DNA from: Xanthomonas albilineans
GTDB lineage: Bacteria > Pseudomonadota > Gammaproteobacteria > Xanthomonadales > Xanthomonadaceae
Length of the DNA: 64,000 nt
Assembly: GCF_002939705.1 (NCBI RefSeq)
Contig: NZ_MDCB01000002.1
Coordinates: 1-64,000, forward strand
Direction: 5' to 3'
The position numbers and the translations under genes are program-made. The notes under the pieces are model-generated. The model made no database searches. It was not told where the DNA came from and was given only the letters and a program-made list of their open reading frames with translations. Positions 1,824 through 38,829 of this stretch are shown one piece after another (within the stretch, counting starts at the first letter, position 1; every line of letters starts with the position of its first letter).

Positions 1824-1864
1824 TGCGAATTTCCGCATTGACCATAGGCAAACGCTGCTAGCCG
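1824..1864 (+). promoter_or_regulatory. Putative regulon element, copy E (hydroxyproline operon)
   Basis: TGCG-AAT-TTCCGCA occupies 1824-1837 in the divergent promoter region, 57 bp before the epimerase ATG. It matches all 11 fixed bases of the first half of the element found at 16813, 19313 and 38789. The second half, expected at 1855-1864, is CTGCTAGCCG and agrees at only 6 of 10 positions with CGACAAGACG. Being next to the AraC gene it is the best candidate for linking that protein to the shared element. Binding is inferred. Confidence 0.5.
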
Positions 1865-1893
1865 ATTCTGGCCCCGAATGTGAGCATGAATGC

Positions 1894-2835
1894 ATGCATA
1901 CGCTCGATGTCATCGACTCGCACAGTGGCGGCGAACCGACCCGTGTCGTCGTCGCCGGCTTTCCCGATCTAGGCACTGGCACGTTGGCGCAGCGGCGTGG
2001 CGTGTTCCGCGACCGTTTCGACCGCTGGCGCAGTGCCATTGCCTGCGAGCCGCGTGGTTCGGACACGATGGTCGGCGCGCTGCTGCTGCCGCCGCTGGAT
2101 CCCGCCGCCTGCGCGGCGGTGATCTTCTTCAACAACGTTGGCTATCTCGGCATGTGCGGCCACGGCACCATCGGCTTGGTCCGTACCTTGGTCGACCTGG
2201 GCCGGTTGGCGCCGGGCGCGCATCGCATCGAAACCCCGGTGGGGACGGTAGGCGTGGCCTTGCACGACGATGGTCGGGTTTCGGTGGACAACGTGGAGAG
2301 CTACCGATATGCCGCTGGCATCCAGGTGCAGGTGCCGGGGTATGGTGCCGTGCGCGGCGATGTCGCCTGGGGCGGCAATTGGTTCTTCATCACCGGGCAG
2401 ACGCCGTGTGCGCTGGAACTGCGCAACCAGCGTGCGCTGACCGCTTACACCGAAGCGATCCGGTTGGCGCTGGACGCGTCGGGCATCCGTGGCGCCGAGC
2501 AGGGCGAGATCGACCACATCGAAATCAACGGGCCAGCGCCGGATACCAGCGCCGATGCGCGCAATTTCGTGTTGTGCCCCGGCCTGGCCTATGACCGCTC
2601 GCCGTGCGGCACCGGCACCAGCGCCAAGCTGGCGTGCCTGGCGGCGGACGGCAAGTTGGCACCGGGCCAGGTTTGGCGCCAGCAGGGCATTCTGGGCAGC
2701 GTGTTCGAAGGCAGTTACACGGCTGGCGAGCGCGGCGTGCTGCCACGCATCACCGGACAGGCTTACATCACCTCGCGGGCGCAGCTGTTGATCGATCCGC
2801 AGGACCCATTCGCTTGGGGTATCGACGCCGGATGA
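1894..2835 (+). CDS. 4-hydroxyproline 2-epimerase
   Basis: This 313-residue member of the proline racemase family interconverts trans-4-hydroxy-L-proline and cis-4-hydroxy-D-proline, the first step of hydroxyproline catabolism. The two catalytic cysteines are visible: Cys88 in GMCGHGTIG and Cys238 in DRSPCGTGTSAK. A Cys at the first site with this operon context favours the hydroxyproline epimerase over proline racemase or the dehydratase, which has Thr at the second site. The start is set at 1894 (MHTLDVIDSHSGGEP, the usual N-terminus); the in-frame ATG at 1816 would add a non-homologous leader overlapping the promoter element. The stop overlaps the next start by ATGA. Confidence 0.93.
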   Translation: MHTLDVIDSHSGGEPTRVVVAGFPDLGTGTLAQRRGVFRDRFDRWRSAIACEPRGSDTMVGALLLPPLDPAACAAVIFFNNVGYLGMCGHGTIGLVRTLVDLGRLAPGAHRIETPVGTVGVALHDDGRVSVDNVESYRYAAGIQVQVPGYGAVRGDVAWGGNWFFITGQTPCALELRNQRALTAYTEAIRLALDASGIRGAEQGEIDHIEINGPAPDTSADARNFVLCPGLAYDRSPCGTGTSAKLACLAADGKLAPGQVWRQQGILGSVFEGSYTAGERGVLPRITGQAYITSRAQLLIDPQDPFAWGIDAG

Positions 2836-36977: not shown

Positions 36978-38614
36978 CCACCCGCGTTGCACCGGGCGGC
37001 GTGTTCGAGCGCGACTCGATGGCTGCCTCGCGCGTGCGCGCCGTGCCCTCCGTCAGCCGCTGGCTGTGGCGGTGCCTGTTCGCTCTGGCTGCACTTGGCG
37101 GCGCGGGTTGCGCGCATGCGCCGCCTTCAGCCGCCGCGATGGTGGCGGCCAGTCCGTTGCAAGGGGTGTGGGTAATTGCTCAGGGGGCGGCGTTTCCCGG
37201 TCTACGTTATCTGCGTATCGCCCAGCGCGACGGTCGGGCGCAGGGCAGCATCACCACCGACTGGTACGGCGATCTGCCGATGCAGCTGTTGCGCCTGGAC
37301 GGCACAGTGGCCCGGTTCGCGATCGACAACGGCAATACGCGCTTGCCGGCGCAGCCATGGACCGCGACACTGGAACACGGCCAACTGCATCTGGTCGGCC
37401 GCATCTGGTACCAACAGATCGACCTGCGTGCTACCCGCGGCAGCGAGACCGACGCAGCGCGGCTGGCGTTCCAATTCGCACCGCTGCCGGCTTACACGCC
37501 GTTGCCGAGCGATGGCCTGGCGCGAACTCCGCCACTGGGCTGGAACAGTTGGAACCGCTTCGGTGAGCATATCGACGACGCTACGGTGCGCCGCATCGCC
37601 GATGCCATGGTCGCGTCCGGCTTGCGCGATGCCGGTTACGTCTACGTCAACATCGACGACGGTTGGCAGGGCCAGCGCGACCGCGACGGCGTATTGCAGC
37701 CGAACGCACGTTTCCCCGACATGCGTGCGTTGGCCGACTACGTGCATGCCAAGGGGCTCAAGCTCGGCCTGTACAGTTCGCCGGGGCCGAAGAGTTGCGC
37801 TGGCTATACCGGCAGCTACGGCCACGTCGAACAGGACGCGCGCACCTGGGCGGGCTGGGGCATCGACTATCTCAAATACGACCTGTGCTCGGGCGAAGGC
37901 ATCTTCCGCGAACCGCAGCAGGTGCGCCGCGCCTACTTGCAGATGGGCCAGGCGTTGCGCGCCAGTGGGCGACCCATCGTTTATAGCCTGTGCGAGTACG
38001 GGCGCGATCATGTCGGCCAATGGGGCCGCGAGGTCGGCGGGCATTTGTGGCGCACCACCGGCGACATCGAGGACACCTACGCGAAAATGGCCGCCAACGG
38101 CTTCGACCACAACGGCGATCCGGCCGATGCCGGACCTGGTGGCTGGAATGATCCGGACATGCTCGAGATCGGCAATGGCGGCATGAGCGAGGACGAATAC
38201 CGCACGCATCTGGCGCTGTGGGCCATGTCGGCGGCGCCGTTGCTGTTGGGTAACGACCTGCGGCAGATGACCCCGGTCACGGTGGCGTTATTGCGTAACC
38301 GAGCGGTGTTGGCGATTGACCAGGATGCGTTGGGTGTGCAGGGCAGGGCAGTGCGCAAGGACGGCGCCATCGAAATCTGGCGCAAGCCGTTGGCCGATGG
38401 CGGCGTTGTGTTGGGCGTGTTCAACCGCGACGCACAGCCGCACCGGGTGGCGCTGACCGCGCAGGATGCCGGAACCGCATTGCAGGGCCGGCGCTGGCGC
38501 GATCTATGGCAGGGCCAGACGCGCCTGGCGCGCCAACTGCGCAGCGTGCAGGTCGCTGCACATGGCGTGGTATTGCTGCGGCTGTCGCCGCCGCAGGTTG
38601 CACGCAGGCATTGA
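36974..38614 (+). CDS. GH27 alpha-galactosidase-type glycosidase
   Basis: A 546-residue secreted enzyme with a hydrophobic leader ending LAALGGAGC (perhaps a lipoprotein), an N-terminal beta-domain of about 110 residues and a GH27 TIM barrel beginning TPPLGWNSWNRFG. The nucleophile is Asp303 in YLKYDLCSG and the acid/base is probably Asp364 in LWRTTGDIEDTY. GH27 contains alpha-galactosidases and beta-L-arabinopyranosidases. Since extensin serines carry single alpha-galactose units, an alpha-galactosidase here would complete deglycosylation; this is inference from context. The start could also be the Met at 37019. Confidence 0.9.
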   Translation: MTTRVAPGGVFERDSMAASRVRAVPSVSRWLWRCLFALAALGGAGCAHAPPSAAAMVAASPLQGVWVIAQGAAFPGLRYLRIAQRDGRAQGSITTDWYGDLPMQLLRLDGTVARFAIDNGNTRLPAQPWTATLEHGQLHLVGRIWYQQIDLRATRGSETDAARLAFQFAPLPAYTPLPSDGLARTPPLGWNSWNRFGEHIDDATVRRIADAMVASGLRDAGYVYVNIDDGWQGQRDRDGVLQPNARFPDMRALADYVHAKGLKLGLYSSPGPKSCAGYTGSYGHVEQDARTWAGWGIDYLKYDLCSGEGIFREPQQVRRAYLQMGQALRASGRPIVYSLCEYGRDHVGQWGREVGGHLWRTTGDIEDTYAKMAANGFDHNGDPADAGPGGWNDPDMLEIGNGGMSEDEYRTHLALWAMSAAPLLLGNDLRQMTPVTVALLRNRAVLAIDQDALGVQGRAVRKDGAIEIWRKPLADGGVVLGVFNRDAQPHRVALTAQDAGTALQGRRWRDLWQGQTRLARQLRSVQVAAHGVVLLRLSPPQVARRH

Positions 38615-38788
38615 GTCGTCAGCAAGGTGGATGCAGTGTCGTGCGCGGCATCGGCGACGCCGCGCATTCGCTTGTGTGTTGCGCGTGTGGCCCGATAGAG
38701 CGGTCGATGGCTGCGGTGTCTGCTCTGATCGGACACATTGCGCATGCCTGCCGCTCGCTGGCGTCGTCGTGCCGCGTCACCACGACCA

Positions 38789-38829
38789 TGCGTTATTCCG
38801 CATGCGAAACCGCTAATTGCGACAAGACG
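38789..38829 (+). promoter_or_regulatory. Putative regulon element, copy B (TonB receptor 3)
   Basis: TGCG-TTA-TTCCGCA (38789-38802), 17 bp, then CGACAAGACG (38820-38829). It is identical to copy A at all fixed bases in both halves and lies 327 bp before the receptor ATG. Confidence 0.65.

What the first reader, a model, noticed from the sequence alone, without database searches (positions are those of the whole stretch)
1824..38829. A 41-bp bipartite element repeated upstream of four polymer-utilisation units, with a partial copy at the hydroxyproline operon
TGCG-N3-TTCCGCA followed after exactly 17 bp by CGACAAGACG occurs at 16813, 19313 and 38789, with a one-mismatch first half at 34311, always on the coding strand upstream of a glycosidase or TonB-receptor gene. 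C and G at positions 9-10 of the spacer are also kept. The first half alone, perfect, lies at 1824 between the PAS-AraC gene and the hydroxyproline operon. Eleven fixed bases should occur well under once by chance in this window. This defines a candidate regulon, possibly run by the AraC protein or, given the 17-bp gap, by an alternative sigma factor.
Basis: partly seen in the sequence, partly recalled or inferred. Interest (0 to 1): 0.9.

Follow-up and report, generated by a model that had tools for sequence, protein, structure and literature searches.

The report
Hydroxyproline-linked regulon for extensin breakdown
A short control sequence marks one set of plant-glycoprotein-digesting genes and the neighbouring hydroxyproline-eating genes in Xanthomonas and its relatives, and the evidence points to one neighbouring sensor protein that switches them on together.

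Summary
The repeated element is real. All five copies in the window (1824, 16813, 19313, 34311, 38789) fit one refined pattern, TGC-N4-TTCCGCA-Y-N19-CWAG-N-C (0.01 expected in shuffles). The copy at 1824 is not partial: it has the second half in a variant form, CTAG instead of CAAG. In the whole genome only these five fit with at most one mismatch. The exact element occurs in 61 of 297 genomes of the family; all 61 carry a PAS-AraC protein at least 60% identical to the one beside the element, and 0 of the 224 genomes lacking such a protein has it. AraC genes with a Q-type first recognition helix have the element upstream (84 of 89); K-type homologues, some in the same genomes, do not (0 of 17). 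A -10-like hexamer lies 17 or 18 bp after the element in 72 of 73 divergent sites. The element's end is therefore the -35 box, and the whole reads as an AraC-activated sigma-70 promoter, not an alternative-sigma promoter. Targets are hydroxyproline catabolism, TonB receptors and extensin glycosidases. The likely inducer is hydroxyproline; this is inferred, by analogy with LhpR.

The parts
1017..1721 (-). PAS_4 + AraC-type HTH regulator (P0001), candidate activator of the regulon
   Evidence: Pfam PF08448, PF12833; structure model mean pLDDT 90.8; co-occurs with the element
1824..1864 (+). Element copy 1 (CTAG type) in the araC-hypE intergenic region
   Evidence: exact match to the refined pattern; conserved beside araC across genera
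1882..1887 (+). Putative -10 hexamer GAGCAT, 17 bp after element 1; hypE ATG at 1894 is 6 nt further, so the mRNA would be leaderless
   Evidence: sequence
1894..2835 (+). 4-hydroxyproline epimerase (hypE), first gene of the hydroxyproline operon
   Evidence: PF05544; NCBIfam NF010577, 448.8 bits, cut-off 442
2604..12889 (+). Hydroxyproline catabolism and peptide use: DAO, pyridine-nucleotide oxidoreductase, DHDPS-family, aldehyde dehydrogenase, M24 prolidase-like, DUF885, amino-acid permease (ORF limits, starts approximate)
   Evidence: Pfam
12956..15313 (+). Dipeptidyl peptidase IV-like (S9)
16813..16853 (+). Element copy 2 (CAAG type); putative -10 CACGAT at 16871-16876
16906..19263 (+). 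Exported protein of unassigned family (P0002), likely glycosidase; element directly upstream in 39 of 41 genomes that have it
   Evidence: no Pfam or NCBIfam match at E 1e-5
19313..19353 (+). Element copy 3 (CAAG type); putative -10 CACATT at 19372-19377
19389..22421 (+). TonB-dependent receptor 1
   Evidence: PF00593, PF07715
22545..26777 (+). HypBA2-like beta-L-arabinobiosidase (GH121) ORF; frame seems interrupted near its 5' end
   Evidence: NCBIfam NF041578, 1073 bits, below its 3200-bit cut-off
26780..28375 (+). GH43 (HypAA-like alpha-L-arabinofuranosidase), start approximate
   Evidence: PF04616
28375..30768 (+). Second dipeptidyl peptidase IV-like protein
30882..34100 (+). CarboxypepD_reg-containing protein, perhaps an outer-membrane (Oar/TBDT-like) protein
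   Evidence: PF13620, 29 bits, below its cut-off
34311..34351 (+). Element copy 4 (CAAG type, most degenerate at its last base and TGC+C); putative -10 GATAGT at 34369-34374
34419..36977 (+). GH127 beta-L-arabinofuranosidase (HypBA1-like), true start probably 34545
   Evidence: PF07944
36671..38614 (+). GH27-type alpha-galactosidase
   Evidence: PF16499, PF17801
38789..38829 (+). Element copy 5 (CAAG type); putative -10 CAAATT at 38848-38853
39051..42035 (+). TonB-dependent receptor 2

Best explanation
The element is the binding site and -35 region of promoters activated by the neighbouring PAS-AraC protein. Shown by sequence: a 41-bp block (left part ATTR-TGC-N-GA-W-TTCCGCA, right part CWAGNC) followed after 17-18 bp by a weak -10 hexamer, mostly of the form NANNAT, present before the hydroxyproline operon, two TonB receptors, a putative exported glycosidase and HypBA1. 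Inferred: the AraC protein, probably a dimer, binds roughly -70 to -30 and recruits sigma-70 RNA polymerase at a promoter with poor -35 (TAGACG or AAGACG) and -10 boxes (class II activation, like AraC at pBAD); the PAS domain senses hydroxyproline or a close derivative released from extensin-type glycoproteins. One signal would so coordinate outer-membrane uptake, removal of Hyp-linked arabinose, proline-directed peptidases and Hyp catabolism. Probabilities: the AraC protein is the regulator 0.88; sigma-70 class II geometry 0.85; hydroxyproline-type inducer 0.6.
For: Confined to the locus in its genome: 4 hits with at most 3 mismatches and 0 reversed controls; the refined pattern gives 4 exact plus one 1-mismatch hit. 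In 20 of 20 genus genomes. Exact refined element in 61 of 297 family genomes; reversed control 1 hit in 1 of 297; all 61 have AraC of at least 60% identity (73 genomes do) and 0 of the other 224 have the element. Upstream of 84 of 89 distinct Q-helix araC genes and 0 of 17 K-helix ones, including pairs in one genome. In genome G030 the P0002-HypBA1 unit with the element is on a 2-Mb contig, over 0.9 Mb from either end, and araC-hyp is on another contig. -10: 72 of 73 sites below 70% identity have NANNNT at gap 17 or 18. hypE ATG 5-7 nt after the -10 in 91 of 93 scored sites. Model: PAS like VqmA, DNA-binding domain like AdpA and AraC.
Against: No binding, expression or start-site data. Twelve of the 73 genomes with AraC of at least 60% identity lack an exact element; several have forms with 1-3 departures, but L104 and L105 lack a full copy beside araC and L108 has it elsewhere. 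Two of 41 genomes with P0002 have no element directly before it. The refined pattern at exactly 2 mismatches gives 14 further hits in the own genome against 6 for the reversed control; I took these for background and did not follow them. The left half is partly an inverted repeat (outer three pairs kept in 73-74 of 74 sites), which would also suit another dimeric protein. The genomes are related, so the Fisher p is not that of independent cases. The inducer rests on gene content and analogy only, and PMC8694187 (passage) groups the PAS domain of LhpR with autoinducer-binding ones, as my match to VqmA would for this protein.
Confidence: 0.82

Rival explanations
1. A different transcription factor (for example a dimeric repressor of LacI/GntR/TetR type) binds the partly palindromic left half, and the AraC neighbour is coincidental.
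For: TGC and GCA arms are complementary in 73-74 of 74 sites.
Against: Only the outer three pairs are kept that well; the right half is equally fixed. Presence follows AraC in 61 of 61 genomes and the AraC recognition helix, across two families. Other regulators were not tested for co-occurrence.
Confidence: 0.08
2. An alternative sigma factor reads the two halves as -35 and -10 boxes 17 bp apart.
For: Fixed 17-bp gap between the halves.
Against: A separate -10-like hexamer sits 17-18 bp downstream in 72 of 73 sites, and hypE starts 5-7 nt after it in 91 of 93. No sigma factor was tested for co-occurrence.
Confidence: 0.03
3. HrpX/PIP-box control, as described for the hypBA2-hypAA operon of X. 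euvesicatoria.
For: PIP-like TTCG-N16-TTCG precedes hypBA2 in X. euvesicatoria; HrpX dependence reported in PMC6085000 (passages read).
Against: In the window the only PIP-like matches are at 11390 and 57440, as many as chance gives (2.29 expected); the element does not contain a PIP box; PMC6085000 reports no PIP box before hypBA1, where in X. euvesicatoria the element precedes the TonB receptor 2 - hypBA1 unit.
Confidence: 0.03
4. The copies are a recently duplicated or mobile repeat without regulatory function.
For: Several copies within 37 kb.
Against: Spacer and flanks differ while about 16 positions stay fixed; 74 site representatives below 70% identity; in the window every copy is upstream of a gene and on its coding strand.
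Confidence: 0.01

Closest known systems
LhpR (PA1261) of Pseudomonas aeruginosa
   Same: PAS (1-107) protein of the AraC family that activates hydroxyproline catabolism on binding L-Hyp (passages in PMC6608401, PMC8694187)
   Different: LhpR sequence and binding site were not available here, so orthology is untested; the passages read do not mention glycosidases or TonB receptors
AraC at E. coli pBAD (class II activation; recalled)
   Same: Position of the site next to and overlapping -35; DNA-binding domain homology (2k9s_A)
   Different: PAS instead of the cupin sensor; no clear 21-bp direct repeat was found
XeHypBA1/XeHypBA2/XeHypAA system of X. euvesicatoria
   Same: Same enzyme set acting on Hyp-linked arabino-oligosaccharides (PMC6085000 abstract and passages)
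   Different: The paper reports HrpX/PIP control of hypBA2-hypAA and leaves in-planta induction of hypBA1 unexplained; the element before TonB receptor 2 - hypBA1 in X. euvesicatoria offers an explanation
HypR (GntR family) regulons of Proteobacteria
   Same: Control hydroxyproline operons (PMC5343134 passages)
   Different: Different regulator family; motif not compared

Membership tests
AraC/XylS family regulator | C-terminal double helix-turn-helix domain | tested here: met
   PF12833 8e-24; Foldseek to AdpA, E 2.7e-07, TMt 0.87
Class II AraC-activated sigma-70 promoter | Activator site abutting or overlapping a weak -35, with -10 at 17-18 bp | tested here: met
   72 of 73 sites; -35-position hexamers mostly TAGACG or AAGACG. 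By sequence only
Class II AraC-activated sigma-70 promoter | Activator binding and start site by experiment | not testable with these tools
   needs footprint and 5' end mapping
LhpR-type hydroxyproline regulator | PAS + AraC architecture beside a hydroxyproline operon | tested here: met
LhpR-type hydroxyproline regulator | Sequence orthology to PA1261 and hydroxyproline response | not tested
   LhpR sequence not fetched; no expression data
HrpX regulon | PIP box TTCGC-N15-TTCGC | tested here: not met
   no PIP-like site near any element in the window
Alternative-sigma promoter | Two halves act as -35 and -10 | tested here: not met
   separate -10-like hexamer downstream; by sequence only

The most novel reading that the evidence does not exclude
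A hydroxyproline-sensing PAS-AraC regulon, ancestrally controlling only Hyp catabolism in this order of bacteria, has been extended by acquiring the same composite operator/-35 element before TonB receptors and extensin-deglycosylating enzymes. The amino-acid end product would thus switch on the whole plant-glycoprotein utilisation system independently of HrpX, with a leaderless hypE mRNA as its first response gene.
Probability: 0.55. Interest if true: 0.7.

Novelty: new member of a known kind. Interest (0 to 1): 0.6.

Why it matters
It gives plant-associated xanthomonads a defined, testable switch that joins uptake, deglycosylation and catabolism of hydroxyproline-rich wall proteins. It offers an explanation for a reported puzzle: hypBA1 of X. 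euvesicatoria rises in infected plants although it has no PIP box (PMC6085000). The recognition-helix and operator pairing, and the step from Hyp operon alone to Hyp operon plus glycosidases, make it a tractable case of regulon growth.

Tried and rejected
Rejected: first half alone as a signal (54 matches with up to 2 mismatches against 47 expected); second half alone (10 with up to 1 mismatch against 6); alternative sigma; PIP box; plasmid origin (megablast of 16700-19500 against plasmids, no match). In one search (up to 3 mismatches) 121 of 297 genomes matched, but many hits are single 3-mismatch coding-like hits such as TGCGTGTTTCCGCC...ATCGACAAGAAC, which I take (from recall) for ribosomal protein L28; that count was not used as evidence, and its match list was cut. 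A search of 369 genomes of the class with the AraC protein gave 7 with a match, four of them in the family itself; the upstream DNA of the three outside was not examined. The structure model of P0002 was too poor to use (mean pLDDT 52.9). No convincing 21-bp direct repeat inside the element. Papers: the listings showed none whose title, abstract start or passages read describe this element or regulon; most listed papers were not opened, and the library holds only open-licence papers.

In one search my query file held P0001-P0003, so seven rows (L113, L114, L116, L120, L122, L124, L127) were not AraC hits; one search repeats it with P0001 only. In one search, 13 of 119 genes had a helix my script did not parse (8 of 13 with the element). 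In one search the genome lists and the 60% split were typed by hand. The match lists and the output were cut.

Full report
What is there. The fifth, at 1824, was called a first half only. Relatives show that it is whole: beside araC in other genera the same left half TGC-N4-TTCCGCA is followed at the same distance by CGCTAGTCG, CTGCTAGCCG or GCGCTAGACC. With the joint pattern TGC-N4-TTCCGCA-Y-N19-CWAG-N-C, all five window copies are exact, where shuffles give 0.01.

Where it occurs. The window lies in a 3.68-Mb genome in 148 contigs. All 20 genomes searched in the genus have it, 2 to 5 hits each; the reversed pattern hits once in the 20. In 297 family genomes the exact refined pattern is in 61 (11 of 54 genera); the reversed control has one hit in one genome. 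Among the best 80 named relatives of the AraC protein the nearest is that of Xanthomonas sp. GPE 39 (97%; the tool says that the window's own or a very near record may be left out). Stenotrophomonas, Pseudoxanthomonas and Luteimonas are among the other carriers, and most loci of Dyella, Rhodanobacter and Luteibacter (Rhodanobacteraceae for Dyella, for the other two by recall) have the CTAG form or a near variant beside araC.

Which protein goes with it. The regulator beside copy 1 is a PAS_4-AraC protein. A relative at E up to 1e-30 is found in 108 of 297 genomes; in 73 the best is at least 60% identical. The exact element is in 61 of these 73 and in 0 of the other 224, although 35 of those 224 have a more distant homologue (lists entered by hand; genomes are not independent). 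Among distinct AraC genes whose upstream DNA I fetched, 84 of 89 with a Q-type first recognition helix (such as S-V-A-Q-L-E-R) have the element, at 14 or more of 16 key positions, within 700 bp upstream, against 0 of 17 with K-type helices (S-K-L-E/Q-R); 13 more had helices my script did not parse, 8 of them with the element. Genomes such as G035, G108 and G061 hold one of each type, and only the Q-type gene has the element. The model has a PAS domain resembling VqmA and a DNA-binding domain resembling AdpA and AraC.

What it controls. The targets are the hydroxyproline operon (epimerase, oxidoreductases, DHDPS-family, aldehyde dehydrogenase, M24 and DUF885 peptidases, permease), an exported protein of unassigned family (P0002), TonB receptors 1 and 2, and GH127 HypBA1; in between lie GH121 HypBA2, GH43, GH27 and two DPP IV-like peptidases. 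I looked at one genome in each of seven other genera. In all seven the element, exact or nearly so, precedes the hydroxyproline operon; in six it also precedes glycosidase or receptor orthologues; in the seventh (G261) it precedes instead the permease-peptidase part and only a distant TonB receptor. P0002 is in 41 of 297 genomes, all among the 73. The element directly precedes it in 28 of 28 loci where my script found the start (2 of 30 loci not parsed), in G030 and, by coordinates, in 10 more; it does not in G061 and G186, where P0002 seems, by eye, to follow another gene closely: 39 of 41. In G030 the P0002-HypBA1 unit with its element is on a 2-Mb contig, 0.91 Mb from its nearer end, while araC and the Hyp operon are on another contig: this points to action in trans.

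How it works. Of 73 site representatives (below 70% identity over 106 bp; one search has 74 because it asked for less downstream sequence), 72 have NANNNT exactly 17 or 18 bp after the element. Two-gap windows that include neither gap 17 nor 18 give 0-13, except 15-25 for windows starting at gaps 33-35, where the hypE start codon lies. Read from the listings, the hexamer is often GAGCAT, CACGAT, CAGGAT or CACATT. The last six bases of the element, mostly TAGACG or AAGACG, are then at -35. For CTAG-type sites with both a hexamer and a recognisable hypE start, the ATG is 5-7 nt after the hexamer in 91 of 93; sites lacking either were left out (10 among the rows printed, and the print was limited to 80), and near-identical orthologues were not merged. 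That leaves no room for a ribosome-binding site, so hypE mRNA should be leaderless. I conclude that this is a sigma-70 promoter with poor boxes and an AraC-type activator bound at about -70 to -30. The inducer is inferred: LhpR of P. aeruginosa, also PAS + AraC, activates Hyp genes on binding L-Hyp (passages in PMC6608401 and PMC8694187); against this, PMC8694187 groups the LhpR PAS domain with autoinducer-binding ones.

Link to known work. PMC6085000 (abstract, outline and passages read) shows that HypBA1, HypBA2 and HypAA of X. euvesicatoria strip arabinose from hydroxyproline-rich glycoproteins, that hypBA2-hypAA depends on HrpX through a PIP box, and that hypBA1 rises in planta with no PIP box. 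In X. euvesicatoria ATCC 11633 I find a PIP-like site before HypBA2 and the element before TonB receptor 2 - HypBA1. In the window there is no PIP-like site near these genes.

Limits. Everything is from sequence. The association with AraC is phylogenetically structured; the helix contrast, the same-genome pairs and the unlinked target are the parts least open to that objection. No other regulator or sigma factor was tested for co-occurrence. The left half is partly palindromic, so a second protein cannot be excluded.

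Noticed in passing
22457-22771: The HypBA2 reading frame seems broken near its 5' end: a signal-peptide-like stretch reads in another frame up to a stop at 22769-22771, just after a run of nine G at 22754-22762, where the homologous ORF takes over; could be a real frameshift, a slippage tract or an assembly error. Described only.
   Followed up: partly
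1882-1896: hypE start codon 6 nt after the putative -10: leaderless mRNA, conserved across genera.
   Followed up: yes
16906-19263: P0002, an exported 785-aa protein with no Pfam or NCBIfam match at E 1e-5, is found only in genomes that have this AraC protein at 60% identity or more (41 of 41).
   Followed up: partly
19354-19380 and 38830-38856; also L005, L121, L161: TonB-receptor promoters share an extra block CACATTGTG (CAAATTGTG at 38848) around the -10 that the other window copies lack.
   Followed up: no
L111, L112, L170-L174: K-helix paralogues of the PAS-AraC protein in Xanthomonas and a relative lack the element; their own sites and targets are unknown.
   Followed up: partly
16040-16310: By eye, a degraded second copy of the end of the DPP IV-like gene of 12956-15313 (compare 15200-15310).
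   Followed up: no
16440-16750: Short ORF resembling, by eye, a flagellar basal-body rod protein between the DPP IV remnant and element 2.
   Followed up: no
46309-56043: LodA-type lysine oxidase with a flavoprotein and a ferritin-like protein, between a gamma-glutamyltranspeptidase and a GH9 cellulase.
   Followed up: no
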